Below are positions 15,807-60,099 of a stretch of DNA of 64,000 nucleotides, one piece after another. Origin of the DNA: Geodermatophilus tzadiensis (GTDB lineage Bacteria > Actinomycetota > Actinomycetes > Mycobacteriales > Geodermatophilaceae); assembly GCF_003002915.1 (NCBI RefSeq), contig NZ_PVTG01000019.1:1-64000 (forward strand). Direction: 5' to 3'. Under the pieces are notes generated by a model that ran no database searches, was not told the DNA's origin, and was given only the letters and a program-made list of their open reading frames with translations. Each line of letters begins with the position of its first letter. The stretch's first letter is position 1. A program made the translations under genes and the position numbers.

Positions 15807-15860
15807 GGCCCCGTCCTCCCCACCCCTGGCTCCGCTCGGGGCGGGACCCGGGACGGGGCC
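15807..15860 (+). terminator. Covarying two-stem 3'-end element, copy E
   Basis: Begins five bases after the acyl-CoA dehydrogenase stop. Outer arms are GGCCCCGTCC and GGACGGGGCC (perfect 10 bp). The inner part has the family form: CCCCAC, a 4-bp inner stem CCCC/GGGG around TGGCTCCGCTC, then GCGGGACCC. It is probably a transcription terminator or 3'-end structure. Confidence 0.6.
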
Positions 15861-15968
15861 GGTCCGGCTCGTCACCGTCGGCGGCCGCCGGTCGTTTCGG
15901 GGGGACGACGGCGGGCATGGCACCGGAGGACAGCGCCGTCGACCAGCGCCGTCGGACAGGAGGAACCC

Positions 15969-16226
15969 GTGAGCGACCCACAGGGCAGCGACCGGATCCA
16001 GCAGGGCGTCCCGACCGCGTCGGGCACCGGCGACAACAGCAGCACCGGCACCGGCTCCAGCTTCGACGACGTGCCGCTCACCGCCGACGAGGCGATCGCG
16101 CGGGACGCGGCCAGCGACGACGACCTGCCGGCCCGCGCCGACTCCGACGTCGCCCGGGCCCGCACCGACGGCCCGTCGGGCGAGGTGGCCGGCCCCACGC
16201 CCCGGTCCGGAGGAGGGAACGACTGA
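15969..16226 (+). CDS. Small acidic disordered protein, first of a pair
   Basis: An 85-residue hydrophilic protein with no hydrophobic core, rich in Asp, Ser, Gly and Thr. The only conserved-looking part is FDDVPLTADEAIARDAASDDDLPARADSD in two short acidic helices (residues 34-60). The GTG at 15969 follows ACAGGAGGAACCC, a strong ribosome-binding site, and the stop overlaps the start of the next small gene (TGATG), supporting a real two-gene operon. No family is recognised. Confidence 0.6.
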   Translation: MSDPQGSDRIQQGVPTASGTGDNSSTGTGSSFDDVPLTADEAIARDAASDDDLPARADSDVARARTDGPSGEVAGPTPRSGGGND

Positions 16227-16417
16227 TGAGCGAGTCCGACCACACCGGGTACCGCGAGTCCCCGAACACCACCGACGGGCCGACCGACGCGAACATGGTC
16301 GACGGCGTCACCGGCGAGGACCGCGCCGACGCGGGGGAGAGCGACACCACCCTCACCACCGACGACGACGCCCAGCGCGACGACTCCGTCGTCCGCGGCG
16401 GCAACCAGTCCGGCTAG
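16226..16417 (+). CDS. Small acidic disordered protein, second of a pair
   Basis: A 63-residue Asp/Thr/Gly-rich hydrophilic protein translated from an ATG that shares its A with the stop of the preceding gene; GGAGGAGGG lies just upstream. Its TAG stop lies inside the palindrome CTAG, which also provides the stop of the convergent response regulator gene. The function is unknown; composition suggests a disordered protein, possibly related to water stress, but that is a guess from composition. Confidence 0.6.
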   Translation: MSESDHTGYRESPNTTDGPTDANMVDGVTGEDRADAGESDTTLTTDDDAQRDDSVVRGGNQSG

Positions 16418-17022
16418 CCGATCCAGCCGTGGCGGCGGGCGACCTCGACGGCGGCGTGCCGGTTGGCCGCGCCGAGCTTGCCCGCGGCGGCGGACAGGTG
16501 GTTGCGCACCGTCCCCGGTGACAGGTGGGCGCGGGCGGCGATCTCCTCGACCGGGGCGCCGCCGGCCGCCAGCTCCAGCACGTCGGCCTCCCGCGGGGTC
16601 AGCGGGCTGTCGCCGGCGCTGATCGCCTCGGCGGCGAGCTCGGGGTCCACGTAGCGGCCGCCGCGGGACACGGTGCGCACGACGTCGGTGAGCACCGGCG
16701 CCGGCACGGTCTTCGGCAGGAAGCCGCGCACCCCGGCCGCCAGCGCGCGCTTGAGGTGTCCGGCCCGGCCGTGACCGGTCACGATGACCACCGCGCAGCC
16801 CGGCAGCAGGGTGCGCAGCCGCCCGGCGACGGTGATGCCGTCGAGGTCGGGCATCTGCAGGTCGAGGACGGCGACGTCGGGTGTGCAGGCCCGCGCCATG
16901 GCCAGCGCCTCGTCCCCGGAGGCGGCCTGGGCGACCACCTCGAGGTCGTCCTCGAGGGCGAGCAGCGCGGCCAGCGCCGAGCGGATGAGGTTCTCGTCGT
17001 CGGCGAGCAGCACGCGGATCAC
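16414..17022 (-). CDS. NarL/DesR-like response regulator
   Basis: A 202-residue LuxR-family response regulator: receiver with ADDE at residues 7-10, phospho-acceptor Asp54 in VAVLDLQMPDLDG and Lys104 in FLPKTV; LuxR helix-turn-helix from about 140 (LTPREADVLELAAGGAPVEE). The GTG start overlaps the stop of the upstream kinase (GTGA), so the two are a translationally coupled pair. The order kinase-regulator next to an ABC exporter is the familiar actinobacterial and firmicute arrangement in which the pair controls the transporter. Confidence 0.93.
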   Translation of the reverse strand: MIRVLLADDENLIRSALAALLALEDDLEVVAQAASGDEALAMARACTPDVAVLDLQMPDLDGITVAGRLRTLLPGCAVVIVTGHGRAGHLKRALAAGVRGFLPKTVPAPVLTDVVRTVSRGGRYVDPELAAEAISAGDSPLTPREADVLELAAGGAPVEEIAARAHLSPGTVRNHLSAAAGKLGAANRHAAVEVARRHGWIG

Positions 17023-18224
17023 ACCGGCACCCCCACCGGGACGGCCGCCGTGAGCACGAAGCGGTCGCCCTCGCGGCCGGCCGACAGCCGCCCGCCGGGC
17101 GCGGCCAGCCGCTCGGCCAGGCCGGTCAGCCCGGCGCCGCGGTCCCCGTCGCCGGTCACGCCGTCGTTCACCACCCGCAGCTCGGCCACCCCGCCCGACG
17201 TCGACAGCGCGATAGTGCACGTGGTCGCGCGGCTGTGCCGCAGCACGTTGGTCACCGCCTCCCGCACCACCCAGCCCAGCGCCGTCTGCACCGGCGCGGG
17301 CAGGGCGACCGCGCCGTCCTCCCCGCTGACGGTCACCTCCACGCCCGCGGCCCGCAGCACCGACCGGGCGCCGGCCAGCTCACCGGGCAGGTCGCTGCCG
17401 CGATAGCCGCGGACGACGTCGCGCACCTCGCGCAGCGACTCCTCCGCGACCCGGCTGATGTCGGTCAGCTCCTGCACCGCACCCTCCCGGCCGCGGCGCA
17501 CCAGCTCGGCGGCGAGCTGGCTCTTCACGGCGATCACCGAGAGGTTGCGGCCCATGACGTCGTGCAGGTCGCGGGCGAAGCGCAGCCGCTCCTCGGCGAC
17601 GGCGAGCTGGGCCTGCACCCCGCGGGTGCGCTCCATCTCCACGACGACGTCGAGCACCCACACGGAGAACCGGAAGGCCAGCACCAGCCCGGTGACGGCG
17701 ACCGTGAAGACGACGCCGAGGACCAGCGCCGCGGACCACTCCTCGCCGCCCAGCAGCACCACCCCGCCGACGAGCAGGCCGACGCCGGCCGACGCGCGGG
17801 TCAGCACGCGCGTGGTCCAGACCGGCGAGGCGGCGGTCAGCAGCATCGCCAGCGGGAGGGCGAGCAGCCAGCCCGTGCCGGGCTCGCCGGACCGGGCCAG
17901 CCCCTCGACCACGCCGGTGCCGGCGGTGACCGCGGCGGCGACCAGCGCGGCGGTCAGCGGACCGGCCGGCGGGGAGCGCCGGGTCCAGCGGGTGGCCAGC
18001 CCCGCGCGGACCAGGACGACGCCGGTGACGGCCACCCCGACCGAGCCGGCCAGGTACAGCCAGGCGGCCGGCGTGGTCGCGACGCCCTCGGAGCCCAGGA
18101 CCATGAGGGCGAGCGCCGGCGTCAGCGCCAGCCAGCCGTAGAAGGACGACCGCGTGTAGAGGTCCAGGCGCTGGGGGTCGGTGCGGCTGCTCCACCAGCG
18201 CGCGACGGTCGGCACGGCCCTCAT
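17019..18224 (-). CDS. Membrane histidine kinase, DesK/LiaS-like
   Basis: A 401-residue kinase with a membrane N-terminus of about five or six helices (residues 28-190: for example FYGWLALTPALALMVLG, LYLAGSVGVAVTGVVLV, ALVLGVVFTVAVTGLVLAF), a short coiled linker, the HisKA_3 helix with FARDLHDVMGRN (phospho-acceptor His221) and a HATPase_c domain with N box REAVTNVLRHS and a glycine-rich GAGLTGLAERL. There is almost no extracellular loop, so a signal within the membrane (lipid state, drug, or the neighbouring transporter) is likely, as known for DesK and intramembrane-sensing kinases. The ATG at 18224 starts just before the first helix. Confidence 0.92.
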   Translation of the reverse strand: MRAVPTVARWWSSRTDPQRLDLYTRSSFYGWLALTPALALMVLGSEGVATTPAAWLYLAGSVGVAVTGVVLVRAGLATRWTRRSPPAGPLTAALVAAAVTAGTGVVEGLARSGEPGTGWLLALPLAMLLTAASPVWTTRVLTRASAGVGLLVGGVVLLGGEEWSAALVLGVVFTVAVTGLVLAFRFSVWVLDVVVEMERTRGVQAQLAVAEERLRFARDLHDVMGRNLSVIAVKSQLAAELVRRGREGAVQELTDISRVAEESLREVRDVVRGYRGSDLPGELAGARSVLRAAGVEVTVSGEDGAVALPAPVQTALGWVVREAVTNVLRHSRATTCTIALSTSGGVAELRVVNDGVTGDGDRGAGLTGLAERLAAPGGRLSAGREGDRFVLTAAVPVGVPV

Positions 18225-18271
18225 GCTGCCGTACCGACCGCCGCCCGCCGGGGCCTCCGGCGCGCCCGTCC

Positions 18272-19090
18272 TCAGCGCTTGGGCGCCCAGCGGAACCACC
18301 GCAGGCTCGCCACGCCGGCGAGGACCACCCAGGCCGCCGCGACGGCCAGCGGGACCAGCGCCGCCCACCACAGCTCCGCGCCGGCCACGGCCTCCCCGTC
18401 CCACGTGCGGCCGGTCAGGCCCAGCTGCACCAGCTCCACGACCGGCGTCAGCGGCAGCAGCCGGGCTCCCGTCGCCAGCGCCTCCGGCAGCGCGACCAGC
18501 GGGAAGAACACCCCGGACAGCGCCGTCGCCCCGAGTACGACCGGCAGGGTGGTCACCTGCGCGGACTCCGGCGTCCGGGTCCAGACGCTGCTCAGCGTGG
18601 CCAGCACGGCCATGAGCACGGCGCCGAGCAGCACGGCCAGCACCGGCAGCACGGGGTCGACCGGGGCGCGCCACTCGCCGAGGACGACCACCCCGACCGC
18701 CACCACGGCGAGCTGGACGGCCGTCACCAGCAGCGTCGGGACGGCGGTGGCGGCGAGCACCTCGCCGTCGGTGAGCTCGCCGGTGCGCATCCGCTGGAGC
18801 ACCAGGGCCTCGCGCCGGGCGACGTAGGTGACGACCAGGTTGTAGTAGGTGAGGAAGACCAGCGTGAACGCGGTCGCGGAGACCAGCAGGGTCTGCCCCA
18901 GCGGGGCGTCACCGGCCCCGAACAGCGGGACGAGCGCCACCAGCAGCAGCGGCGAGAGCACCGAGTTGACCACGGCGGTGCGGTTGCGCAGCAGCAGCCG
19001 GGTCTCGGCGCCGGCGAGGGCACCGACGCGGCGGAGGCGGGACGGTCCGCCGGGGACGGCGGTGGGGACGGGGACGGCGGTGGCGGTCAT
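18272..19090 (-). CDS. ABC-2 type transporter permease
   Basis: A 272-residue ABC-2 membrane subunit with six hydrophobic segments. The N-terminal GAETRLLLRNRTAVVNSVLSPLLLV and the later LPVVLGATALSGVFFPLVALPEAL with the following LLPLTPVVELVQLGL are the family signature. It would form the membrane channel of an exporter for drugs, lipids or peptides with the ATPase encoded just upstream. The ATG at 19090 follows AGGAG. Together with the downstream kinase and regulator it forms a four-gene unit. Confidence 0.92.
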   Translation of the reverse strand: MTATAVPVPTAVPGGPSRLRRVGALAGAETRLLLRNRTAVVNSVLSPLLLVALVPLFGAGDAPLGQTLLVSATAFTLVFLTYYNLVVTYVARREALVLQRMRTGELTDGEVLAATAVPTLLVTAVQLAVVAVGVVVLGEWRAPVDPVLPVLAVLLGAVLMAVLATLSSVWTRTPESAQVTTLPVVLGATALSGVFFPLVALPEALATGARLLPLTPVVELVQLGLTGRTWDGEAVAGAELWWAALVPLAVAAAWVVLAGVASLRWFRWAPKR

Positions 19091-19116
19091 CGGGGGCTCC
19101 TGTCGGGGAGGCGGGG

Positions 19117-20061
19117 TCAGGCGAGGTCGGCACCGTCGGCGACGGCGAGGAAGGCCTGCTCGAGCGAGGCGGCGCGGGCCTGCAGGCCGGGCAGCTGCAC
19201 CCCGGCGCGGGCGGCCCAGGTGAGCAGCTCGGCGAGCACCGGCTGCAGGTCGCGGGTGTGCCACTCGACGCGGGGGCCGGAGGCGACGACCTCGACACCG
19301 GCGGGCACCGGCGGCTGCGGGGTGCCCGGGTCGAGCCGGAACGAGACGGTGGCCGGCTGGGTCTCGGCGATCTCCTCGCGGGTGCCGGCGGCCACCACCG
19401 TGCCGGCGCGCATGATCGCGATCCGGTCGGCCAGTTGCTCGGCCTCCTCGAGGTGGTGCGTGGTGAGCACGACCGCGGCGCCGTCGTCCACCAGGCCGCG
19501 GACCAGCCGCCACACGGTGCGGCGGCTCTCCGGGTCCAGGCCGGTGGTCGGCTCGTCGAGGACCAGCACCCGCGGGCGGCCGAGCAGCGCCAGCGCCAGG
19601 TCGAGCCGGCGGCGCTCGCCGCCGGAGAGGCTGCGCACCCGGACGTCGGCGCGGCCGGTGAGGTCCACCTGCGCCAGCGCCTCGGCGACCGGCCGGGGTG
19701 CGGTGAGGGTGCCCGCCCACGTGCGGACGGTCTCGGCGACGGTCAGGTCGCCGGGCAGGCCGCTCGCCTGCAGCAGCACGCCCAGGTGCGGGCGGACGGC
19801 GGCCCGCTCGCGGCGCGGGTCGGCGCCGAGGACGCGCACCGAGCCGCCGGAGGCCGGGGCCAGCCCCTCGAGGACCTCCAGGGCCGAGGTCTTGCCGGCC
19901 CCGTTGACGCCGAGCAGCGCGAGGACCTCGCCCGGGCGGACCTCGAAGGAGATGCCCCGGACGGCCTCGAACGAGCCGTACCGGCGGCGCAGGTCGGTGA
20001 CCTCGACCGCGGGCGCGGCGACGGGCGCCGGGACCGGCGCGAGCGTGGGTGTCGGGTGCAC
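19117..20061 (-). CDS. ABC transporter ATP-binding protein
   Basis: A 314-residue ATPase of the drug/Nod/ABC-2 exporter group. Walker A GVNGAGKTS, Q-loop LGVLLQASGL, signature LSGGERRRLDLAL, Walker B VLVLDEPTTGLD and the H-loop TTHHLEEAEQ are all intact. A C-terminal accessory region (about 225-314) ends in the common ARAASLEQAFLAV motif. The GTG start has an ideal GAGGAGGT ribosome-binding site. It is first in the operon with the permease, kinase and regulator. The exported substrate cannot be inferred. Confidence 0.94.
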   Translation of the reverse strand: MHPTPTLAPVPAPVAAPAVEVTDLRRRYGSFEAVRGISFEVRPGEVLALLGVNGAGKTSALEVLEGLAPASGGSVRVLGADPRRERAAVRPHLGVLLQASGLPGDLTVAETVRTWAGTLTAPRPVAEALAQVDLTGRADVRVRSLSGGERRRLDLALALLGRPRVLVLDEPTTGLDPESRRTVWRLVRGLVDDGAAVVLTTHHLEEAEQLADRIAIMRAGTVVAAGTREEIAETQPATVSFRLDPGTPQPPVPAGVEVVASGPRVEWHTRDLQPVLAELLTWAARAGVQLPGLQARAASLEQAFLAVADGADLA

Positions 20062-20417
20062 GGCGGGACCTCCTCGGGGTGCCCGCCGGCCGGGGGTCGG
20101 CCGCTGTCGTCCGGGCACGTCCCCACGCTCCCGCCGTCCCCGGCCCGGCACAGGTGCCGTCCCTCACGACCTGCGCCGGGACGCACACGGGGAGCCCGTG
20201 ACGGGTGTCACGGGGAGCCCGTGCACGTCGCGGCCCGGTCCCGCCGTGGCGGCGCACGTCCCGGCTCTCCGGTCGTGTGTGCACGGACCACGCCCCGGTC
20301 CCGTCCCGGCACGAGGGCCCGCCGTCCGGTCCGTGTGCGGAACCGCCACCGTCCGGACCGGAGCTGTGTGGGTGGCACCCGTGGGTGTGACCGGAGCCAC
20401 CCTCTACGGTGCCCGTC
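20062..20417. other. 356-bp divergent control region
   Basis: Separates the ABC-kinase operon (leftward) from bdhA (rightward). No credible reading frame is visible. The centre carries twin palindromes at 20186-20223. Toward bdhA the sequence CACCCGTGGGTG near 20381-20392 is another short palindrome. No ribosome-binding site precedes the bdhA ATG, which may therefore be leaderless. Confidence 0.5.
20186..20223. promoter_or_regulatory. Twin palindromic operator candidate
   Basis: The 15-mer CACGGGGAGCCCGTG, itself a palindrome of 6-bp arms around GAG, occurs twice at 20186-20200 and 20209-20223, 23 bp apart (about two helical turns). The junction makes a further palindrome, CCCGTGAC-GGGT-GTCACGGG (20195-20214 approximately). 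Such spacing is typical of two repressor dimers bound to one DNA face. Confidence 0.5.
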
Positions 20418-21170
20418 ATGGGCGCGGAGGACCTCGAGGGTCGGCGGGCGATGGTGACCGGTGGCGGTTCCGGGATCGGGCGGGCGGTGGCCGCGCGGCT
20501 GGCGGAGGCCGGCGCCGCGGTGGTGGTCGTCGACCGCGACGCCGCGGCCGCCGAGGCGGTGGCCGCCACGGTCGGGGGCACGGCCGTGACGGTGGACCTC
20601 TCCGACCTGGCCGCCGTCGACGCCCTGGACCTCGACGTCGACGTCCTGGTCAACAACGCCGGCTTCCAGCACGTCGCGCCGGTGCACGAGTTCCCGGTCG
20701 AGGTCTTCTCCACCATCCAGCGGCTCATGGTCGAGGCGCCGTTCCGGTTGGTCCGCGGGGCGCTGCCGCACATGTACCGGCGCGGCTGGGGGCGGGTGGT
20801 CAACGTCAGCTCGGTGCACGGCCACCGCGCCTCCCCCTACAAGTCGGCCTACGTGACCGCCAAGCACGCGCTCGAGGGGCTGTCGAAGGTGGTCGCGCTC
20901 GAGGGGGCGCCCCACGGCGTCACGTCCAACTGCGTGGCGCCGGCCTACGTGCGGACCCCGCTGGTCGAGGGGCAGATCGCCGACCAGGCGCGCACGCACG
21001 GGATCTCCGAGGACGAGGTGGTCGAGCAGGTCATGCTCGCCCCCGCGGCGCTCAAGCGGCTCATCGAGCCGGCCGAGGTCGCCGACGCCATCGCCTGGCT
21101 GTGCTCGCCGGCCGCCACCTCGGTCACCGGCACCTCCCTGCGCATGGACGGTGGGTGGACCGCCCACTGA
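20418..21170 (+). CDS. bdhA: 3-hydroxybutyrate dehydrogenase (SDR)
   Basis: A 250-residue short-chain dehydrogenase that interconverts 3-hydroxybutyrate and acetoacetate with NAD, linked to polyhydroxybutyrate or ketone-body use. Cofactor motif TGGGSGIG at residues 12-19, VNNAGF, catalytic Ser in NVSSVHGH and the YVTAKHALEG Tyr/Lys pair are present. The HVAPVHEFPVE and the long insertion ARTHGISEDEVVEQVMLAPAALKRLIEP before the C-terminus are typical of 3-hydroxybutyrate dehydrogenases. ATG 20418 is preferred to a GTG nine bases earlier. The stop overlaps the ATG of a GAF/PucR regulator, so enzyme and regulator are made together. Confidence 0.88.
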   Translation: MGAEDLEGRRAMVTGGGSGIGRAVAARLAEAGAAVVVVDRDAAAAEAVAATVGGTAVTVDLSDLAAVDALDLDVDVLVNNAGFQHVAPVHEFPVEVFSTIQRLMVEAPFRLVRGALPHMYRRGWGRVVNVSSVHGHRASPYKSAYVTAKHALEGLSKVVALEGAPHGVTSNCVAPAYVRTPLVEGQIADQARTHGISEDEVVEQVMLAPAALKRLIEPAEVADAIAWLCSPAATSVTGTSLRMDGGWTAH

Positions 21171-23128
21171 TGGCCCGGCCGGACGGGGTGCCGGCCGTGG
21201 CCCGGACCGCAGCACCGCCCACCGGCGGCGCCGCCCGGGCTCCCCGCGCGACCTCGGCGGCCGCCGAGTACCTGCGGCTGGTGCTCGACGACGCCGCGGC
21301 GATCGAGTTCGAGGGGCCGCTGGTGCGCGCCCGGGCGTCGGGCGCCGACGCCGCGACGCTCGCCGAGCTGGAGGGCGTGCGGCTGCTCGCGCTGCAGGTG
21401 CGCGCCGCGTTCGCCGCCCGCCGCCGCCGGGAGTCCGAGCTCTCGGCGCTGTTCGACACCGCCAGCGACCTGGCCGCCCTGCGCGGCGTCGACTCGGTGC
21501 TGACCGCGATCGTCCGGCGCGCCCGGCAGCTGCTGGGCACCGACGTCTCCTACCTGACGCTCAACGACGACGCCCGCGGCAACACCTACATGCGGGTCAC
21601 CGACGGCTCGGTCTCGGCGCGGTTCCAGGCGCTGCGGCTGCCGATGGGCGCCGGCCTCGGCGGGCTGGTGGCGCAGGCGGCGGCGCCGTACGCGACCGCG
21701 AGCTACTTCACCGACCCGCGGTTCCACCACACCGACGAGATCGACGACGGCGTCCGCGAGGAGGGCCTGGTCGCCATCCTCGGCGTCCCGCTGATCCGCG
21801 GGTCGCAGGTGATCGGGGTGCTCTACGCCGCCGACCGCACCGAGCGGGCCTTCGACCGCTCCGAGGTGGCCCTGCTGGGCTCGCTGGCCGCGCACGCGGC
21901 GATCGCCATCGACAACGCCCGGCTGCTGGAGGAGACCCGCACCGCGCTCGAGGAGCTGTCCGCGGCCACCCGCGAGCTCCGCGCGCACACCGAGTCGGTG
22001 GAGCGGGCCGCGGGTGCGCACGACCGGTTCATCGGCGTCGTGCTGCGCGGGGGCGGGGTGGAGGGCGTCGCGGCCGCCGTGACCGAGGCCCTCGGCGGCC
22101 GGATCACCGTGCTCGACGAGGAGGGCCGGCCGACCGCCGGGGACGACGGGGCGGCCGCGCTGCCGCCCGACCCCGCCGGTGCGCTGGCGCTGGCCCGGGC
22201 CACCGGCCGCACCGTCCGCGACGGCGAGTGGTGGACCGCCGCGGTCACCGTGGGCAGTGAGCTGCTCGGCGGGCTGGTGCTGCAGCAGGCCGCCGACCTC
22301 TCCGACGCCGACCAGCGGATCCTCGAGCGCGCCGCGCTGGTGACCGCGCTGCTGCTGCTCATCCGGCGCACCGCCGGCGAGGCGGAGGGCCGGGTGCGCG
22401 GCGAGCTGGTCGACGAGCTGCTGACCGTGCCGCTGCGCGACCCCGACGGGCTGCGCGAGCGCGCCCGCCGGCTGGGCGCCGACCTCGACCGGCCGCTGGC
22501 GGTGGTCGTCGTCCGGGTGGAGGAGCGCTGCCGGGGGCGGGCGCTGGCCGCCGCCACCCACCTGGCCGCCACCCGCGGGGGCCTGGCCGGGACGCGGGAC
22601 GCCCGCGTCGTGCTGTGCCTGCCCGACCTCGCCGCCGCCGACGCCGCCGCGCTGGTGCGCCGGGAGGTGGCCGCGGCGGTGGGCCGGCCGGTGACCGCGG
22701 GCGGCGCGGGGCCGGTGCACGGCCCCGCCGCGGTGGCCGGCGCCAGCGCGGAGGCGGGGCGCTGCGCGTCGACGCTGGAGGCGCTCGGGCGGGCCGGTGA
22801 GTCGGCCAGCGCCGACGAGCTCGGCTTCGTCGGGCTGCTGGTGGGCGAGGGCCGCGACGTCCCGGGGTTCGTCACCGCGACCCTCGCGCCGGTGCTCGAC
22901 TACGACGCGCGCCGCGGTACCGACCTGGTGACGACGCTGCGGGCCTGGTTCGCCACCGGCGGCTCCCCCGCGCGGGCCGCCGAGGTGCTCAACGTGCACG
23001 TCAACACCGTCACCCAGCGGCTGGACCGGGTGGGCCGGTTGCTCGGCCGCGACTGGTCGGCGCCCGACCGCGCGCTGGAGGTGCAGCTGGCGCTGCGGCT
23101 GCACCGGCTGACGGCCGCGGGCGACTGA
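21170..23128 (+). CDS. GAF-domain PucR/CdaR-family transcriptional regulator
   Basis: A 652-residue activator. After about 90 helical residues comes a GAF domain (about 95-265, including GVPLIRGSQVIGVLYAADR), then a coiled segment, a PucR/CdaR central region and a C-terminal HTH_30 domain (about 590-650: TLRAWFATGGSPARAAEVLNV, then HVNTVTQRLDRVGRLLG). The same architecture is known for activators of purine, sugar-acid and hydroxybutyrate use. It overlaps bdhA by one base (TGATG), so the probable target is that gene and perhaps a distant polyhydroxybutyrate locus. The GAF domain probably senses the inducer. Confidence 0.88.
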   Translation: MARPDGVPAVARTAAPPTGGAARAPRATSAAAEYLRLVLDDAAAIEFEGPLVRARASGADAATLAELEGVRLLALQVRAAFAARRRRESELSALFDTASDLAALRGVDSVLTAIVRRARQLLGTDVSYLTLNDDARGNTYMRVTDGSVSARFQALRLPMGAGLGGLVAQAAAPYATASYFTDPRFHHTDEIDDGVREEGLVAILGVPLIRGSQVIGVLYAADRTERAFDRSEVALLGSLAAHAAIAIDNARLLEETRTALEELSAATRELRAHTESVERAAGAHDRFIGVVLRGGGVEGVAAAVTEALGGRITVLDEEGRPTAGDDGAAALPPDPAGALALARATGRTVRDGEWWTAAVTVGSELLGGLVLQQAADLSDADQRILERAALVTALLLLIRRTAGEAEGRVRGELVDELLTVPLRDPDGLRERARRLGADLDRPLAVVVVRVEERCRGRALAAATHLAATRGGLAGTRDARVVLCLPDLAAADAAALVRREVAAAVGRPVTAGGAGPVHGPAAVAGASAEAGRCASTLEALGRAGESASADELGFVGLLVGEGRDVPGFVTATLAPVLDYDARRGTDLVTTLRAWFATGGSPARAAEVLNVHVNTVTQRLDRVGRLLGRDWSAPDRALEVQLALRLHRLTAAGD

Positions 23129-23130
23129 CC

Positions 23131-27616: not shown

Positions 27617-27673
27617 GGTCCCGCTGCAGGGTCCCGCACCGAGCGCCAGCGAGGTGTGGGGGCAGCGGGGTCC
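27617..27673 (-). terminator. Covarying two-stem 3'-end element, copy C
   Basis: Read on the minus strand it begins four bases after the stop of the small gene at 27678. Outer arms are GGACCCCGCTGC and GCAGCGGGACC; the inner stem is CACC/GGTG around the conserved TCGCTGGCGCTC, followed by GCGGGACCCT. Relative to copies A and B both stems are changed in compensating fashion. Confidence 0.6.
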
Positions 27674-27677: not shown

Positions 27678-27824
27678 TCAGACGCGCGGCGTCCAGGCGC
27701 TGTTGGCCATGGTGAGCAGCTCGTCGCGCATCGCCGGGCTGCTGCTGCGGGCGAGGGCCCGGTCGAGGGCGCGCCGCGTCCGAGCCGCCTGCCGACGCTG
27801 CCGCCAGGTGGTCCCGCTGTTCAT
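27678..27824 (-). CDS. Small basic protein of unknown function
   Basis: A 48-residue Arg-rich protein, mostly predicted helical (TWRQRRQAARTRRALDRAL, then SSPAMRDELLTMANS). The ATG at 27824 has a good GAGGAGA ribosome-binding site, and a family-type terminator element follows the stop, so the gene is probably real. I do not recognise a family. It might bind nucleic acid because of its charge, but that is only a suggestion. It is separated from ptsI by 158 bases of AT-richer sequence with no clear frame. Confidence 0.55.
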   Translation of the reverse strand: MNSGTTWRQRRQAARTRRALDRALARSSSPAMRDELLTMANSAWTPRV

Positions 27825-33919: not shown

Positions 33920-34180
33920 ATGCCCAGCCAGACCGTCACCGTCGGCTCCCGGGTCGGCCTGCACGCCCGCCCGGCCGCGCTCATCGCCGAGGCGGTGGGC
34001 AAGGCCGGCGTCCCGGTCACCCTGGCCACCCCCGGCGGCGCGCCGGTCGACGCCGGGTCGCCGCTGATGATCATGACCCTCGGCGCCCAGAAGGGCACCG
34101 AGGTGACCGTCACCAGCGACGACCAGTCCGTCGTCGACCAGATCGCCGGCCTGGTCGCGCAGGACCTGGACGCCGAGTAG
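33920..34180 (+). CDS. ptsH: PTS phosphocarrier protein HPr
   Basis: An 86-residue HPr that shuttles phosphate from enzyme I to FruA. Active-site His15 lies in VGLHARPAA. A serine (Ser47, SPLMIMTLGA) occupies the position of the regulatory site of firmicute HPr, but I see no HPr kinase here and actinobacteria generally lack one. The ATG follows GCGAGGACGACGA. It ends the fru operon; a two-stem element begins five bases after its TAG and a long hairpin follows. Confidence 0.95.
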   Translation: MPSQTVTVGSRVGLHARPAALIAEAVGKAGVPVTLATPGGAPVDAGSPLMIMTLGAQKGTEVTVTSDDQSVVDQIAGLVAQDLDAE

Positions 34181-34185: not shown

Positions 34186-34241
34186 GGACCCTCCTGCCCC
34201 CCGCCGCTCGCAGGCTCGCAGCGGGACCCTGCAGGAGGGCC
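34186..34241 (+). terminator. Covarying two-stem 3'-end element, copy A
   Basis: Starts five bases after the ptsH stop. Outer arms are GGACCCTCCTGC and GCAGGAGGGCC; the inner stem is CCGC/GCGG around TCGCAGGCTCGCA-like loop sequence, followed by GCGGGACCCT. It shares the outer arm sequence with copy B at 54871 and differs from C, D and E by compensating changes. Confidence 0.65.
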
Positions 34242-34248: not shown

Positions 34249-34292
34249 ACGACGGCGCCCGTCCCCTCGCTCGAGGGGACGGGCGCCGTCGT
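34249..34292. terminator. Perfect 19-bp bidirectional terminator hairpin
   Basis: ACGACGGCGCCCGTCCCCT and its exact complement surround CGCTCG. It lies between the end of the rightward fru operon and the end of the leftward SRPBCC gene and is strong enough to stop transcripts from both. Confidence 0.85.
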
Positions 34293-46723: not shown

Positions 46724-46741
46724 GGTCGGCGACTCTCCTTC

Positions 46742-46865
46742 TCCCAGGCCGCCTACCGGGTTAGCTGACGGGTTCGGGCGTGGAGTCGCCCGGCGCGCAC
46801 GCGCGCTACACCCCGAGGACTGCGATGGGTCCCCGGCCCGGTGACCCGGAGGGGGCACCGGCTCG
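46742..46865 (-). ncRNA. Cyclic di-AMP riboswitch (ydaO-yuaA class)
   Basis: Read on the minus strand, the leader contains GGGGACCCA (46834-46826), GGGGTGTAG (46814-46806), CCCGAACCC and CAGCTAACCCGGTAGGC (46767-46751), in the order of the ydaO-yuaA consensus, followed by GGCCTGGG and then the GGAGAG ribosome-binding site of the NlpC/P60 gene. The class binds c-di-AMP and usually lowers expression of cell-wall hydrolases or osmolyte genes. Exact ends are approximate. I see no other gene in the 331-bp gap 46724-47054. Confidence 0.8.
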
Positions 46866-47054
46866 ACGGCGTCCACGGGGTGTCACCCAGGTCAGTGACG
46901 GAGCGCCCCGTTGGACACACAGAGAGTAGGCATCGATACCCGGGCGTGACAATCCCCTCCGCGTGATCCATCTGTCGACACCCGGTGACGGCCGGCACAG
47001 GCCCGCCGCCGCGGCCCCGTTTGGGACGGGTCCGGGCCGAGCAGGAGTCGGGGC

Positions 47055-54713: not shown

Positions 54714-54817
54714 CGGGGTGGGACCTGTCGTCAGGGGGACGCGGGTTCGTCCGCCACGCTAACCGACGTCCGCGCGCTCAGCAGTTGAACCGCTCCGTTC
54801 CGTGCCGGGACGGCAGC

Positions 54818-54855
54818 GGGCCCCGCCCCGGACGACGCTGTCCGGTGCGGGGCCC
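54818..54855. terminator. Strong hairpin beyond copy B
   Basis: GGGCCCCGCCCCGGAC and GTCCGGTGCGGGGCCC pair over 16 bp with one mismatch around a 6-base loop. It lies between the end of pckG and the MFS start, 15 bases past copy B, and would also act as backup terminator for pckG. Confidence 0.7.
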
Positions 54856-54870
54856 TGGACCCGCGCGGGC

Positions 54871-54928
54871 GGCCCTCCTGCAGGGTCCCGCCCCGAGCGT
54901 CAGCGAGGGGTGGGGGGCAGGAGGGTCC
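54871..54928 (-). terminator. Covarying two-stem 3'-end element, copy B
   Basis: On the minus strand it begins three bases after the pckG stop. Outer arms GGACCCTCCTGC and GCAGGAGGGCC (same as copy A), inner stem CCCC/GGGG around TCGCTGACGCTC, then GCGGGACCCT. Confidence 0.65.
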
Positions 54929-54931
54929 TTC

Positions 54932-56746
54932 TCACGCCAGCCGGCTCTTGAGGATCTCCAGCTCGTCCCACATGGTGCTGGGCAGCTTGTCCCCGAACTT
55001 CTCGAACCACTCGGTGATCTGCGGGATCTCCTCGCGCCACTCGTCCCGGTCGACGGCGAGCGCCTTGCGGACCTGGTCCTCGGTCATGTCCAGGCCCGAG
55101 ACGTCGAGCGAGTCCGCCGTCGGGACGTGGCCCACCGCGGTCTCCTCGGCCGCGGCGGTGCCCTCGAGGCGCTCGACGACCCACTTGAGCACCCGGCTGT
55201 TCTCGCCGAAGCCCGGCCACAGGAAGCCGCCGTCCTCGTCGCGGCGGAACCAGTTCACGTAGAAGATCCGCGGCAGCTTGGTCGAGTCGTGCATCTTGCC
55301 GGTCTCGACCCAGTGGCCGAAGTAGTCGCCCGCGTTGTAGCCGATGAACGGCAGCATCGCGAAGGGGTCGCGGCGGACGACGCCGACCGCGCCGGTGGCC
55401 GCCGCCGTCGTCTCCGAGGACAGCGTGGCGCCCATGAACACGCCGTGGTTCCAGTCGCGGGCCTCGGTGACCAGCGGGATCGTCGTCTTGCGGCGGCCGC
55501 CGAAGAGGATCGCCGAGATCGGCACGCCCTTCGGGTCGGTGTACTCCGGCGCCAGGATCGGGCACTGGGTGATCGGGGTGCAGAACCGCGAGTTCGGGTG
55601 CGACGAGGGCTCGTCGGAGTCCGGCGTCCAGTCCTGCTTCTTCCAGCTGGTGAGGTGCGCCGGCGGCTCCTCGGTCATGCCCTCCCACCAGACGTCGCCG
55701 TCGTCGGTGAGGGCGACGTTGGTGAACACCGAGTTGCCGTTGTCGATGGTGCGCATCGCGTTGGGGTTGGTGTCCCAGCCGGTGCCCGGGGCGACGCCGA
55801 ACAGCCCGTACTCGGGGTTGATGGCGTAGAGCCGGCCGTCCTCACCGAACCGCATCCAGGCGATGTCGTCGCCGATGGTCTCGACCTTCCACCCGGGGAT
55901 GGTGGGCTCGAGCATCGCCAGGTTGGTCTTGCCGCAGGCGCTGGGGAAGGCCCCGGCGACGTAGTAGGTCTTCTGCTGCGGGCTGGTCAGCTTGAGGATC
56001 AGCATGTGCTCGGCGAGCCAGCCCTCGTCGCGGGCCATCGCCGAGGCGATCCGCAGCGAGTAGCACTTCTTGCCCAGCAGGGCGTTGCCGCCGTAGCCCG
56101 AGCCGTAGGACCAGATGGCCCGCTCCTCGGGGAAGTGCACGATGTACTTGGTCTGGCTGCAGGGCCAGGGGACGTCCTCCTGGCCCTCCTCCAGCGGGGC
56201 GCCCAGGGAGTGCATGGCCGGCACGAACGGCCGGTCGGTGCCCATCGCCTCGAGGATGCGGCTGCCGATGCGGGCCATGACGCGCATCGAGACGACGACG
56301 TACTCCGAGTCGGTGAGCTCGACGCCGAACATCGGGTTCTCGGCCTCGACCGGGCCCATGCAGAACGGGATGACGTACATCGTCCGGCCGCGCATCGAGC
56401 CGCGGTACAGCTCGGTCATGACCGCCTTCATCTCGTCGGGGGCCATCCAGTTGTTGGTGGGCCCCGCGTCGGCCTCGTCGACCGAGCAGATGAACGTGCG
56501 GTCCTCGACGCGCGCGACGTCGCTGGGGTCGGAGGCGCACCAGAAGGAGTTGGGCTTCTTCGCCAGGCGGGTGAAGGTGCCGGCGTCGACCAGCTGCTGG
56601 GTCAGCCGCTCCCACTCCTCGTCGGTGCCGTCCACCCACACCACCCGGTCCGGCTGCGTCAGCTCCGCCATCTCACGCACCCACGCCAGCAGCCGGGCGT
56701 GGGTGGTGGGGGCGTTGTCGAGACCGGGGGTGGCCACGGAAGTCAC
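54932..56746 (-). CDS. pckG: Phosphoenolpyruvate carboxykinase (GTP)
   Basis: A 604-residue GTP-dependent PEPCK that converts oxaloacetate to PEP, the first committed step of gluconeogenesis. The N-terminal half carries RIPFCMGP-like [23 protein letters not shown]; the kinase P-loop is the diagnostic [11 protein letters not shown] near residue 280, followed by [34 protein letters not shown] and the GTP-specific [24 protein letters not shown]. All are intact. The GTG at 56746 gives the family length. The promoter (56847-56875) leaves a leader of about 90 bases. Ends at copy B. Confidence 0.96.
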
Positions 56747-56846
56747 GGCGTCTCCATCCTCTGGGGCACGCCGGGTGCGGACGACACCGGCGCCGGGGGC
56801 GTGCTCTGTCCCGACGGCGGAGGGTTCCCGCCGTCCGGGTCGGGTC

Positions 56847-56875
56847 AGCGTACAAGCGGGGACACCCGCCTGTAA
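56847..56875 (-). promoter_or_regulatory. Promoter of pckG
   Basis: On the minus strand TTACAG (56875-56870), 17 bases, TACGCT (56852-56847) form a sigma-70-type promoter with consensus spacing. Transcription would start near 56840. The -35 overlaps the inverted repeat GTAACG-N8-CGTTAC at 56872-56891, a plausible operator. Confidence 0.55.
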
Positions 56876-56964
56876 CGGTGAGAGACGTTACGTCCTAGAC
56901 GTCTTGCCACGCCCGTCGTCGTTCCCCGGAAGACGCCTGGCCGGCGCGGTGTTGGGCCCCTGAC

Positions 56965-58140
56965 GTGACCGGTTCCACACCCGAGACGCCCGCCCTGCTG
57001 ACCCCGCTGACCGTGCGCGGGGTGACCCTGCCCAACCGGTTGGTGGTCGCCCCGATGTGCCAGTACTCCGTCTCCGACGGACTGGTCGGCGACTACCACC
57101 TGGTGCACCTGGGCCGCTTCGCCCTCGGCGGCTTCGGCCTGGTCCTGGTCGAGGCGACGGCCGTGACGCCGCAGGGCCGGATCAGCCACGGCGACGTCGG
57201 CCTGTGGTCCGACGGGCACGTGCCCGGCCTGGCCCGGGTGGCCGACTTCCTGCGTGCCCACGGCGCGGTCGCGGGCATCCAGCTGGCCCACGCCGGCGCC
57301 AAGGCCAGCAGCCAGCGGCCGTGGGAGGGCGGCGCGGCGGTGACCGCGGGGAACGCCCGGCCCGGCGAGCAGCCCTGGCCCACGGTCTCGGCCAGCGCGG
57401 TGCCGGCCGGGCCCGGCTGGCCCGTGCCGCACGAGCTGACCGTCGCCGAGCTCGGCGAGGTCCGCGACGCCTTCGTCGCCGCGACCCGGCGGGCGCTGGC
57501 CGCCGGCTTCGACGTGGTCGAGGTGCACGCCGCGCACGGCTACCTCCTGCACCAGTTCCTCTCGCCGCTGTCCAACCGGCGCACCGACGGCTACGGCGGC
57601 TCGCGGGAGGCGCGCATGCGCTTCCCCCTCGAGGTGGTGGCGGCCGTGCGCGCCGAGTGGCCCGAGGACCGGCCGCTGTTCGTGCGGGTCTCGGCCGTCG
57701 ACGGCTCCGACGGCGGGATCACGCTCGAGGACACCGTGGCCCTGGCCGCCGAGCTGCGCGCCCGCGGGGTCGACGTCGTCGACGTCTCCGGCGGCGGCCT
57801 CGGCGGCTGGCAGCACCCGCTGGGCTACGGCTACCAGGTGCCCTTCGCCGCCCGGCTCCGCGCCGGGGCGGACGTCGCGACGATGGCGGTCGGGCTGATC
57901 GTCGACCCGCGCCAGGCCGAGGCCGTCGTCGCCGGGGGCCTGGCCGACCTGGTGGCGGTGGCCCGGGAGGCGCAGGACGACCCGAACTTCGCCGTCCACG
58001 CGGCCCGGGAGCTCACCGGCCGCTACGACGCCTACCCGGTGCAGGCCGGGCCGCGGCTGGGCCGGCGGGGGGAGTTCCTCGGCACCCTGGGCCCGTGGAC
58101 GGGGCCCGGGCCGGTGCAGGTCGCCGAGCGCGCCCGGTGA
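56965..58140 (+). CDS. NADH:flavin oxidoreductase, Old Yellow Enzyme (YqjM-like)
   Basis: A 391-residue FMN beta/alpha-barrel that reduces activated alkenes with NADPH. The OYE landmarks are LPNRLVVAPMCQYS (Cys32, the YqjM-type redox-tuning Cys), GIQLAHAGAKAS, the substrate-binding EVHAAHGYLLHQFLSPLSNRRTDGYGG near residues 188-213 and GGGLGGWQHPLGYGYQ. It belongs to the thermophilic-like, YqjM class often linked to oxidative stress. GTG start at 56965; four-base overlap with the next membrane gene. A regulator is not adjacent. Confidence 0.92.
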   Translation: MTGSTPETPALLTPLTVRGVTLPNRLVVAPMCQYSVSDGLVGDYHLVHLGRFALGGFGLVLVEATAVTPQGRISHGDVGLWSDGHVPGLARVADFLRAHGAVAGIQLAHAGAKASSQRPWEGGAAVTAGNARPGEQPWPTVSASAVPAGPGWPVPHELTVAELGEVRDAFVAATRRALAAGFDVVEVHAAHGYLLHQFLSPLSNRRTDGYGGSREARMRFPLEVVAAVRAEWPEDRPLFVRVSAVDGSDGGITLEDTVALAAELRARGVDVVDVSGGGLGGWQHPLGYGYQVPFAARLRAGADVATMAVGLIVDPRQAEAVVAGGLADLVAVAREAQDDPNFAVHAARELTGRYDAYPVQAGPRLGRRGEFLGTLGPWTGPGPVQVAERAR

Positions 58141-58559
58141 CCCGCCGCCGGGGGCTCCTCGCCGTCGCCGCCGTGCAGCTCGCCGCCGGCCTGACCGGGC
58201 AGGTGCTGTCGGTGCGGCGGCGGCGGGCCTTCGACACGCCGCTGCTGGCCGGCGACCCGGCGCGGGTGGGCCGCGACGCGTGGTGGGCCGGGACGGCGCT
58301 CGGCCCGCCGGCGTGGACCCTCGCCGTCTCCGCGGGGGCGCTGGCCCGGCTGGCCGCGCGCCCGGACCCGCGCGCCGCCGCCGTTCTCGGGTGGGGAGGC
58401 GCCGCCCTGGTGCCCGGCTACCTGCAGGAGCGGCTGGTGCGGCAGCGGCTGGCCTCCCCCGCCGACGCACCGGCGGAGGCCGCGGTCGCCGCCGTGGGGC
58501 TGGCGGCCGCGGCGGCGATGGCGGTGCTGGGCGCTCAGGCCTCCGGCGCGCGGCCGTAG
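58137..58559 (+). CDS. Small membrane protein of unknown function
   Basis: A 140-residue protein that overlaps the Old Yellow Enzyme gene (GTGA). Four hydrophobic stretches (about residues 6-24, 45-68, 78-92 and 115-134) with short basic loops (RRRRAF, RLAARPD) suggest an inner-membrane protein. No motif is recognised. Translational coupling hints at shared regulation with the reductase. The 3' end overlaps the convergent SRPBCC gene by 25 bases. Confidence 0.6.
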   Translation: MTRRRGLLAVAAVQLAAGLTGQVLSVRRRRAFDTPLLAGDPARVGRDAWWAGTALGPPAWTLAVSAGALARLAARPDPRAAAVLGWGGAALVPGYLQERLVRQRLASPADAPAEAAVAAVGLAAAAAMAVLGAQASGARP

Positions 58560-59068
58560 TCCGGGCCGGTCGCGGCGAGGAAGGCGTCCCATTCGGCGGG
58601 GGGCGGTCGCCCGCCGACCTCGGCGTCGAACTTGTCGAGGTACCAGTGCCAGCCGAGGGCGAAGTCGGAGACGTCGGTGCCGGCTGGGAACACCTGGACG
58701 AAGTGCAGGGTGGTGCGGCCGCTCTCCACGGTGAGGTCCAGCTCGACCCGCCAGGCCTCCGCCCCGGCCTGCACCCACTCGACGACCAGCCGGCACGGCG
58801 GGTCGCACTCGACGATCGTCACCTCCTCGCTCGCCGGCTCGGACTCGTGGGTCATGGTGAACGAGCCGCGGCCGCCGGGGGCCCGCTCGCCCTCGTAGGT
58901 GCCGATCCAGCGGGGCAGCCGGTCGGGTCCGGTGAGCGCGGCCCAGACCTCGTCGGGACCGTCGGGCCAGGAGCGGCGGAACTCCAGGCGCTGCCGGCCG
59001 TCGGGGAGCGTGCTGACGGCGCCGCGGCGGTCGGTCGGGGCCGCGGCGGGGGTCTGCTGGTCGGTCAC
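58535..59068 (-). CDS. SRPBCC/AHSA1-family protein
   Basis: A 177-residue START-like protein with the AHSA1 signature RQRLEFRRSWPDGPDEVWAALTGPDRLPRWIG (residues 24-55) and the final GWHWYLDKFDAEVGG. These proteins commonly follow an ArsR repressor in actinobacteria. It begins at the GTG within the ArsR stop (GTGA), so the two are cotranslated. Ligand unknown; the ArsR-AHSA1 pair is often involved in stress response or drug tolerance, but that is only family lore. Confidence 0.85.
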   Translation of the reverse strand: MTDQQTPAAAPTDRRGAVSTLPDGRQRLEFRRSWPDGPDEVWAALTGPDRLPRWIGTYEGERAPGGRGSFTMTHESEPASEEVTIVECDPPCRLVVEWVQAGAEAWRVELDLTVESGRTTLHFVQVFPAGTDVSDFALGWHWYLDKFDAEVGGRPPPAEWDAFLAATGPDYGRAPEA

Positions 59069-59406
59069 GGGGCGTCTCCGTCCGTCGGGGGGTGCACCCG
59101 GGCCCGGCGGCCGCGGGCGATCTCGGTGTCCAGCGCGTCGAGCCGCTGCGCCCACAGGTCGCGGTAGGGCTCGAGCCACTCGTCGAGCTCCCGCAGCGGC
59201 CGCGGGTCGAGCGCGTAGAGCCGCCGGCGTCCCTCCACCCGGCTGCGGACCAGTCCGGCCTCGCGCAGCACGCGCAGGTGCCGGCTGACCGCCGGGCGGC
59301 TCACCGGGAACCGGCCGGCGAGCTCACCGGCGGCGAGCTCGCCCTGCGCCAGCAGGCCGAGCAGCTCCCGGCGGGTCGGGTCGGCGAGGGCCGCGAGCGC
59401 CTCCAC
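59065..59406 (-). CDS. ArsR/SmtB-family repressor
   Basis: A 113-residue winged-helix regulator with ALADPTRRELLGLLAQGELAAGELAGRF, then PVSRPAVSRHLRVLREAGLVRSRVEGRRRLYAL, the standard ArsR helix-turn-helix and wing. No metal-binding Cys appear, so it is probably not a metal sensor. Starts at GTG 59406. A perfect 10-bp inverted repeat lies immediately upstream and should be its operator, giving autoregulation of the two-gene unit with the SRPBCC gene. Confidence 0.92.
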   Translation of the reverse strand: MEALAALADPTRRELLGLLAQGELAAGELAGRFPVSRPAVSRHLRVLREAGLVRSRVEGRRRLYALDPRPLRELDEWLEPYRDLWAQRLDALDTEIARGRRARVHPPTDGDAP

Positions 59407-59410
59407 GGTG

Positions 59411-59436
59411 CATGCGTAACACGCCGGTTACGCATG
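59411..59436. promoter_or_regulatory. Operator of the ArsR-SRPBCC pair
   Basis: CATGCGTAAC and GTTACGCATG are exact complements around ACGCCG, a 26-bp palindrome whose edge is five bases before the ArsR start. It is the strongest operator in the window and certainly overlaps the promoter or a leaderless start. Confidence 0.75.
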
Positions 59437-59479
59437 GGCCAGCGGTTCGCCGCCGGTCGGGGCGGGCACCGGGGAGCGC

Positions 59480-59722
59480 ATGACCGTCACCGACCCCGAC
59501 GTCCCCGACCCGCTCAACGACCCCCGGACGACGCAGGCCGACCCCGGCGCCTACGGCGAGGGCGCCGACCTGGCCTCGGCCGGCGACGACCCGGCGTCCA
59601 CCGGCGAGGACGAGCTGGCCGCCGACGACGCGGAGACCACGGCCGGGCAGACCCTCGCCGACGACGCCGGCGGCGGGGACGTCACCGGCGGGGCGTTCCC
59701 GGAGGTCCCGGACGGGCGGTGA
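59480..59722 (+). CDS. Small acidic disordered protein
   Basis: An 80-residue Asp/Ala/Gly-rich protein (DDAETTAGQTLADDAGGGDV) without hydrophobic core or Cys. ATG follows GGGGAG. It resembles the small acidic proteins at 11590, 15969 and 16226 in composition. No family is recognised. The spacing to the next gene is 75 bases. Confidence 0.55.
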   Translation: MTVTDPDVPDPLNDPRTTQADPGAYGEGADLASAGDDPASTGEDELAADDAETTAGQTLADDAGGGDVTGGAFPEVPDGR

Positions 59723-59797
59723 CGAACCGGTCCGGTTTCGGACGGCGGTCGCGGGGAACCTGCTGGTTCGCCCACCCCCGACGACCAGGAGGTACCC

Positions 59798-60040
59798 ATG
59801 GCCACCGGTGAGACCGGCTTCGAGGACGTCACCTACGACCTCATCTCCGTGCAGTACCACTCGCTGAAGGCAGGGCACGACTACGGCCAGTACGTGCGGG
59901 ACGCCGAGAACGCGGGCCTCGACGACATCGCCGCCTTCTTCCGCGAGGTGATGGAGCAGGACTCCGCGCGCGCCCGCCGCTGCCACGAGTTCCTGCGGAC
60001 CCTCTCCGGCACCGAGCAGGGCGGCCCCGCCACCCAGTAG
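59798..60040 (+). CDS. Small conserved helical protein
   Basis: An 80-residue protein that looks all-helical: DVTYDLISVQYHSLKAGHDYGQYVRDAENAGLDDIAAFFREVMEQDSARARRCHEFLRTLS has conserved-looking Tyr, His and Glu in helices spaced as in ferritin-like or hemerythrin-like bundles, though it is too short for a full four-helix bundle. Perhaps two copies associate. The ATG at 59798 is preceded by GGAGGTACC. A two-stem element follows three bases after the TAG. Function unknown. Confidence 0.65.
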   Translation: MATGETGFEDVTYDLISVQYHSLKAGHDYGQYVRDAENAGLDDIAAFFREVMEQDSARARRCHEFLRTLSGTEQGGPATQ

Positions 60041-60043
60041 AGA

Positions 60044-60099
60044 GGACCACCCTTCCCCCCACGCCTCGCACGCTCGGCGCGGGCCCTTGAAGGGTGACC
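60044..60099 (+). terminator. Covarying two-stem 3'-end element, copy D
   Basis: Outer arms GGACCACCCTTC and GAAGGGTGACC, inner stem CGCC/GGCG around TCGCACGCTC, then GCGGGCCC. The outer stem differs from all other copies but still pairs. Confidence 0.6.

What the first reader, a model, noticed from the sequence alone, without database searches (positions are those of the whole stretch)
15807..60099. A five-copy two-stem element with compensatory changes after stop codons
Copies at 15807-15860, 27617-27673, 34186-34241, 54871-54928 and 60044-60099 start 3-5 bases after the stop codon of the gene they follow, always in that gene's orientation. Outer stems: GGCCCCGTCC, GGACCCCGCTGC, GGACCCTCCTGC (twice), GGACCACCCTTC, each with a matching complement. 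Inner 4-bp stems: CCCC/GGGG (twice), CACC/GGTG, CCGC/GCGG, CGCC/GGCG. The linking CCCCCAC, the TCGC-N3-GCTC loop and GCGGGACCC stay nearly constant. Two variable but paired stems around fixed segments is the pattern of a selected RNA or DNA structure, not of a simple repeat. I do not know a named family that fits.
Basis: seen in the sequence. Interest (0 to 1): 0.75.

Follow-up and report, generated by a model that had tools for sequence, protein, structure and literature searches.

The report
Stop-codon-abutting DNA hairpin repeat family
The five copies belong to a large family of short DNA hairpins, often more than a hundred per genome in one group of soil bacteria, that sit almost flush against the stop codons of genes and come and go between close relatives; how they reach that spot is open.

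Summary
In detail: five copies at the stated coordinates, 3-5 nt after a stop codon, in gene orientation. A covariance model finds at least 148 copies in this Geodermatophilus genome, hits in 101 of 112 genomes of its family, and hits in 2 of 394 genomes sampled across the class, both of that family. Of 210 complete copies, 180 have a stop triplet 0-5 nt before the element (control 18/210); between convergent genes 63 of 75 copies abut a true gene stop. Covariation is strong, but G·U pairs are no commoner than A·C mismatches, which argues for concerted DNA-level change rather than selection on an RNA stem. It is probably not the terminator: further hairpins follow it as often as they follow element-free genes, and no T-run follows. 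Copies come, go or change variant between close relatives. Stop-codon identity differs at 13/36 element sites against 19/451 element-free ones. I read it as a REP-like, non-autonomous mobile hairpin with hypervariable feet. The host genome has no detectable Y1/RAYT, RVT_1 or IS110 protein, so the mobiliser and the cause of the stop adjacency are unknown.

The parts
15807..15860 (+). Element copy 1, 5 nt after the TGA (15799-15801) of an acyl-CoA dehydrogenase-like gene
   Evidence: same-orientation element within 8 nt of the orthologous stop in 4 of 20 Geodermatophilus genomes examined
27617..27673 (-). Element copy 2, 4 nt after the TGA (27678-27680) of a 48-codon ORF (27678-27824, -)
   Evidence: 3 of 26 genomes
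34186..34241 (+). Element copy 3, 5 nt after the TAG of the HPr phosphocarrier gene (33920-34180)
   Evidence: 12 of 26 genomes
54871..54928 (-). Element copy 4, 3 nt after the TGA (54932-54934) of PEP carboxykinase (GTP)
   Evidence: 9 of 26 genomes (7 by script, 2 whose ends the script misplaced)
60044..60099 (+). Element copy 5, 3 nt after the TAG of an 80-codon ORF (59798-60040); carries the commonest right tail GTTCCAGCACG
34254..34287 (+). Separate terminator-like hairpin downstream of copy 3, present in relatives with and without the element
60118..60146 (+). Separate terminator-like hairpin downstream of copy 5
54818..54855 (-). Separate terminator-like hairpin downstream of copy 4, present behind PEPCK orthologues with and without the element

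Best explanation
A family of about 57-nt interrupted DNA hairpins (roughly 75-80 nt with a degenerate right tail, consensus GTTCCAGCACGTCACC) that behaves as a REP-like, non-autonomous mobile repeat of Geodermatophilaceae. It spreads and is lost by insertion, ectopic exchange and hairpin deletion, and settles right behind stop codons, upstream of any separate terminator hairpin. Its stems stay paired while changing sequence because both arms are replaced together (conversion from another copy, or template switching within the palindrome), not by stepwise RNA compensation. Both feet of the hairpin are hot spots of small changes. Insertion at the stop, or loss of the left spacer until it meets sequence under selection (the stop codon, or a -10 box on the other strand), leaves the hairpin flush with that boundary and repeatedly rewrites the stop codon. 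Shown: copy number, taxonomic range, stop adjacency, covariation without G·U excess, presence/absence turnover, stop-identity turnover, hypervariable feet, retained downstream hairpins. Inferred: that it moves as DNA, that both arms change in one event, and that insertion or spacer loss explains the adjacency.
For: Copies: at least 148 at E<=1 with 150 candidates scored; 62 in a survey of 1.24 Mb. Range: 24 of 24 other same-genus genomes and 0 of 16 genomes of other families of the order; 101 of 112 family genomes, yet 0 in the near-complete G041 and G069 and 4 and 2 in G047 and G057, although most genomes of those two genera reach or come near the cap of about 50 scored per genome; 2 of 394 class genomes, both of this family. 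Position: 180/210 against control 18/210; 151 of 206 behind a codon-scored gene end; convergent intervals 63 of 75 at a true stop, where true stops are 516 of 1296 stop triplets (p=6e-15). Turnover: filled in one and empty in the other close relative, or different stem variants at one site; one 56-nt copy is identical at two loci. Stop identity 13/36 vs 19/451 (p=3e-8); divergence is 0.231 vs 0.026 per nt at the stop codon, 0.111 vs 0.075 in the last sense codon, and not raised further upstream. Feet: of 7 G000-G006 pairs with orthologous hairpins (>=88% identical), 6 differ in the stop or spacer, one of them with a 57/57 identical hairpin and an identical 20-nt right tail. G·U vs A·C 36:50 in the outer stem, 56:108 overall.
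Against: No target-site duplication and no clean single-event insertion could be defined; intergenic flanks diverge too fast. No mobilising enzyme: Y1_Tnp is absent from this genome and from 20 other family genomes tried; RVT_1 and IS110 are absent from this genome. The right foot varies too (20-nt tail identical in only 2 of the 7 orthologous pairs), so a mutable foot does not by itself explain why only the left end abuts a boundary. Intermediate spacings (6-60 nt), which spacer loss predicts for young copies, are few. Unpaired positions are more conserved than the stems, which template switching alone would erase, so something may recognise the structure. Some copies persist at orthologous sites (PEPCK in G000, G002, G006). 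The A·C count in the inner helix is probably inflated by shared descent.
Confidence: 0.6

Rival explanations
1. Insertion is targeted to the termination codon itself: the machinery recognises a true stop (in frame, in gene orientation), the unit carries purine-rich left ends that rebuild a stop at the same place, and stop identity changes as a by-product.
For: True stops are preferred over stop triplets elsewhere, also in promoter-free convergent regions (63/75; of the 12 others only 1 lies directly behind another copy). Offset and stop identity are tightly linked (TGA at 4 or 1, TAG at 2 or 5, TAA at 0). TAG and TAA are commoner before elements than in the background (49 and 16 of 180 against 64 and 7 of 527).
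Against: Non-gene-end copies abut opposite-strand -10-like boxes (ANNNTA 15/55 vs 2/55 control), so stops are not the only neighbours. The left foot changes even when the hairpin is unchanged, so rewriting does not need insertion. ORF length is kept in 36 of 38 element sites, but also in 451 of 489 element-free ones (p=0.76), so it is no special support. At the HPr stop TAG is kept in 7 of 12 occupied and 9 of 13 unoccupied genomes (p=0.69). No enzyme that acts this way was found.
Confidence: 0.22
2. A selected cis element of the mRNA 3' end (translation termination, mRNA stability or ribosome stalling), like E. coli REPs within 15 nt of a stop codon.
For: Strict orientation and distance to the stop; strong pairing; E. 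[quoted passage not shown]
Against: No G·U preference on the transcript strand; presence at orthologous genes is patchy; near-complete genomes of the same genera have none.
Confidence: 0.12
3. An intrinsic transcription terminator family.
For: Stable GC-rich hairpin just after stops.
Against: No T-run after the stem (T is 0.43, 0.42 and 0.43 at +2, +3 and +12, otherwise at most 0.19 over 45 positions; the consensus scan lists no site at the five copies). A second hairpin with a stem of at least 10 bp follows in 13 of 43 element ends and 119 of 422 element-free ends with room (p=0.86); co-directional to convergent neighbours 26:17 against 281:141 (p=0.50). Terminator-like hairpins outside the element are also present in species without it.
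Confidence: 0.03

Closest known systems
REP sequences (E. coli and others; RAYT-associated)
   Same: Short, high-copy extragenic palindromes, many just behind stop codons; one study proposed that 260 of 496 E. coli REPs act in translation from within 15 nt of a stop, another tool counts 446 of 4,072 (passages of PMC12306157). That REPs are moved by RAYTs is from titles/abstracts and recall.
   Different: No Y1 transposase in this genome or in 20 other family genomes tried; tighter spacing (0-5 nt in 180/210); variable paired stems around near-fixed unpaired bases. REP sequences themselves were not aligned to it.
MIRU of mycobacteria
   Same: 40-100-bp repeats scattered in a mycobacterial chromosome (passages of PMC2734929). 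Insertion at stop codons in gene orientation is recalled; my searches did not show it.
   Different: No sequence comparison was made; the passages that I read do not describe two-stem hairpins.
Integron attC sites (recalled)
   Same: Structured hairpin with variable stems and fixed extrahelical bases behind a stop codon.
   Different: Here the gene and its neighbours stay in place with or without the element. attC motifs and integrases were not searched.
MITEs (recalled)
   Same: Short non-autonomous repeats with terminal inverted symmetry and patchy presence.
   Different: No target-site duplication seen at empty sites; no parent insertion sequence known, and none was searched beyond Y1 and IS110.

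Membership tests
REP/RAYT system | High-copy extragenic palindrome | tested here: met
REP/RAYT system | Y1 (HUH) RAYT transposase in the host genome | tested here: not met
   PF01797: 0 in own genome, 0 of 20 other family genomes; E. coli control positive
REP/RAYT system | Conserved tetranucleotide guide at the foot | tested here: inconclusive
   left-foot consensus GAA directly before GGACC; a GTAG-like motif was not looked for explicitly
MITE | Terminal inverted repeats with target-site duplication | tested here: inconclusive
   GGAA/TTCC extension suggested by base frequencies in part of the copies; no duplication seen at empty sites read by eye
Intrinsic terminator | Hairpin followed by T-run | tested here: not met
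Structured regulatory RNA family | Covariation above shuffled and slid controls | tested here: met
   (alignments fitted to the model; one of five measures not above shuffles)
Structured regulatory RNA family | G·U tolerated over A·C on the transcript strand | tested here: not met
   36 vs 50 outer stem, 56 vs 108 overall
Rfam (any of 4227 families) | Match at gathering score | tested here: not met
   whole window; one copy with flanks, E<=1, none over gathering
Integron attC | Cassette array and integrase | tested here: inconclusive
   gene order kept with and without element; integrase not searched
MIRU | Sequence relation | not tested
   -

The most novel reading that the evidence does not exclude
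A mobile DNA hairpin whose insertion is coupled to translation termination: the machinery reads the in-frame stop codon as its address, replaces it with a new stop built from its own left end, and leaves the protein unchanged. This would be an insertion strategy that is harmless to the host gene by construction.
Probability: 0.13. Interest if true: 0.88.

Novelty: new variant of a known kind. Interest (0 to 1): 0.6.

Why it matters
Why palindromic repeats gather right behind stop codons is, as far as I know, unsettled already for E. coli REPs. Here the pattern is sharper (0-5 nt), it occurs in genomes without a detectable RAYT, it comes with measurable stop-codon turnover, and 101 related genomes carry it, so insertion, spacer loss and selection can be told apart. 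The family is also a warning: a textbook covariation signal arises here without the G·U signature of an RNA, in line with template switching creating compensatory changes (abstract and introduction of PMC8794818).

Tried and rejected
Rejected: intrinsic terminator; a known Rfam family; RAYT/IS200-605 mobilisation by a resident enzyme; mobilisation by resident RVT_1 or IS110 proteins, both without a match in this genome (IS110 is present in the element-free G041 and G069; neither of these two is among the 49 RVT_1 positives); spread by plasmids or phages, with one 56-nt copy as query (no match); plain targeting of any stop triplet (true stops 63/75 against 40% expected in convergent regions).

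Led nowhere: literature searches for this repeat in Geodermatophilaceae or by its features listed no paper on it; only the held open-licence library was searched, and I saw listings. A first extraction of orthologous gene ends missed loci stored on the minus strand and was redone; the script misplaced two PEPCK ends (G005, G018), which do carry the element 4 nt behind a TGA, and could not place one genome at the 48-codon ORF. An attempt to see what element-free genomes carry behind stops was limited to 20 kb each of G041 and G069, with one weak hit (17.3 bits) in G069.

Rows dropped: of 232 model hits (62+123+47), 224 were distinct with 80-nt flanks and 210 had a complete 5' end; 206 had 250 nt upstream; 217 of 232 lay in intervals of at least 20 nt. 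In one search only pairs with equal ORF length were used. Changes made on re-checking: weight of stop-targeted insertion lowered from 0.25 to 0.22, and the novel case from 0.15 to 0.13, because ORF length is kept as often without the element and the HPr site shows no significant shift.
Full report
Observation. Each folds as one interrupted hairpin: an outer stem of about 11 bp, an asymmetric internal loop, a CCC/GGG stem, an A·C mismatch, a variable 4-bp stem, a symmetric TC/TC mismatch and, in most, a GC/GC cap. The preceding genes are an acyl-CoA dehydrogenase-like gene, a 48-codon ORF, HPr, PEP carboxykinase and an 80-codon ORF, so no common function is apparent.

Copy number and range. A covariance model of the five copies finds at least 148 copies in the own genome at E<=1, with only 150 candidates scored. 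A survey of 1.24 Mb (61 sources) finds 62 at E<=0.1, which extrapolates to about 240 per genome. All 24 other same-genus genomes have it (18 to 138 matches, cap about 137; 21 of 24 have at least 112) and 0 of 16 genomes of other families of the order. In the family 101 of 112 genomes have it, over 9 of 12 genera. The 11 without a match are the near-complete G041 and G069 and nine genomes of three further genera; G047 and G057 have 4 and 2 (about 50 candidates scored per genome). Of 394 genomes drawn evenly from the class only two match, both of this family (14 candidates scored per genome, stricter filters, most rows not listed).

Position. Of 210 complete copies, 180 have a stop triplet ending 0-5 nt before the element; the control (the downstream flank read on the other strand) gives 18 of 210 (p=4e-63). 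The control also has a peak at 11 nt (46 of 210), made by the conserved right tail. With a codon-usage test, 151 of 206 copies follow a gene end within 5 nt; 25 more have a stop triplet there without a scored gene. In convergent intervals, where promoters cannot explain avoidance, 63 of 75 copies are at a true gene stop although true stops are 516 of 1296 stop triplets there (p=6e-15); of the 12 others one lies directly behind another copy. In co-directional intervals 96 of 131 copies are at their own stop, 17 are farther behind it (9 of these directly behind another copy) and 18 have no gene stop behind them; all 11 copies in divergent intervals have none. Among 55 copies not at a scored gene end within 5 nt, 15 abut an opposite-strand TANNNT box (control 2 of 55; none of 151 gene-end copies). 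So the left end tends to abut a boundary that is itself functional.

Covariation. On 59 distinct own-genome copies 96.7% of cells pair, with 133 doubly changed cells against 30.2±4.0 shuffled and 8-26 slid; further pair types (26 vs 24.4) do not exceed the shuffles. On 119 distinct copies from named genomes, 275 against 75.4±5.8 and 9-34. These alignments were fitted to the model, which leans towards its structure. States changed on one side only are rare (17 cells against 275). Over 269 distinct copies G·U-type cells number 36 and A·C-type 50 in the outer stem, and 56 and 108 overall; an earlier count on 192 copies without model alignment gave 35 and 38. An RNA stem under selection should tolerate G·U over A·C on the transcript strand. 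The excess of A·C in the inner helix probably comes from shared descent and I do not build on it. Unpaired positions (A29, T35, C36, T45, C46, C51, C56, C58 of alignment A5) are constant in 88-100% of 123 copies while stems vary, so plain palindrome correction is not the whole story.

Turnover. Between G000 and G006, the closest relative found (98% in PEPCK, 94% in the acyl-CoA dehydrogenase), sites are filled in one and empty in the other (12 and 15 gene ends) or filled in both (11), often with different stem variants. At these ends the coding sequence is 2-3% divergent from -60 to -10, 6.5% from -9 to -4 and 11% in the last codon (equal-length pairs). Over four window sites in 20-26 congeners each, a same-orientation element within 8 nt of the stop was found in 9 of 26 (PEPCK; 7 by script, 2 added by eye), 4 of 20 (acyl-CoA dehydrogenase), 12 of 26 (HPr) and 3 of 26 (the 48-codon ORF), often with different stems; remnants below the model threshold count as absent. 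Terminator-like hairpins beyond the element are shared by species with and without it. One 56-nt copy is identical at two loci of the own genome.

Stop codons. Among G000-G006 orthologues with equal ORF length, stop identity differs at 19 of 451 element-free ends and at 13 of 36 ends with an element in either genome (5/12 G000 only, 3/13 G006 only, 5/11 both; p=3e-8). ORF length is kept in 36 of 38 element ends and in 451 of 489 others, which is no difference (p=0.76). Divergence is 0.231 per nt at the stop against 0.026. In 7 G000-G006 pairs where the hairpin is orthologous (>=88% identical), the stop or spacer differs in 6, once with a 57/57 identical hairpin and identical 20-nt right tail; but the right tail also differs in 5 of the 7, and an eighth pair (G000-G002, PEPCK) is identical throughout. 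So the feet of the hairpin are mutable, and rewriting of the stop does not require a new insertion. At the HPr stop alone the shift is not significant (TAG in 7 of 12 occupied, 9 of 13 unoccupied genomes).

Not a terminator. Behind the element 13 of 43 ends have a further hairpin of at least 10 bp, against 119 of 422 element-free ends with room (p=0.86) and 16 of 353 operon-internal ends; the mix of co-directional and convergent neighbours is ordinary. No T-run follows.

Mobiliser. Y1_Tnp is absent from the own genome and from 20 further family genomes tried. RVT_1 has matches in 49 and IS110 in 74 of 112 family genomes, and neither in the own genome. No plasmid or phage record matches the one copy tried. 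Other transposase families were not searched.

Interpretation. Shown: a high-copy, patchy and changing hairpin repeat, seen only in one family so far, that abuts stop codons, with concerted stem variation and mutable feet. Inferred: REP-like mobile DNA. Open: whether adjacency comes from insertion at the stop, loss of the spacer, or selection. I put 0.6 on the REP-like mobile-hairpin reading, 0.22 on stop-targeted insertion as the dominant cause of adjacency (the two overlap), and 0.12 on selected mRNA function. The six literature searches that aimed at this repeat listed nothing on it; papers were seen as search listings, apart from passages of PMC12306157 and PMC2734929 and the abstract and introduction of PMC8794818.

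Noticed in passing
window 46734-46867 (-): c-di-AMP riboswitch (ydaO/yuaA leader, RF00379), 59.3 bits.
   Followed up: no
G000:C9:94065-94371 (locus L115) and G000:C1:519359-519519 (locus L084): Tandem arrays of the element: five copies spaced 62-63 nt and three copies in a row; only the first of each abuts the stop.
   Followed up: partly
own genome, 3' regions of the 1.24-Mb survey: Other palindromes behind stops: 12-mers of GATCAGGTGACCTGATC in 10-11 gene ends and of GCACTTCCGCGGAAGTGC in 6-8.
   Followed up: no
L118:4695-4750: A copy identical over 56 nt to one at G000:C3:279264 lies between what look like the arms of another inverted repeat (GTCCTCCCGCACCG ... GTCGGGTAGGAC).
   Followed up: no
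L062:1282-1337: A copy between two divergent genes, with a TANNNT box close to each end, as if it filled the space between two -10 boxes.
   Followed up: no
window 1864-1950 (-): ARAGORN calls a tRNA-Ala (GGC anticodon) inside a region with long ORFs; possibly spurious.
   Followed up: no
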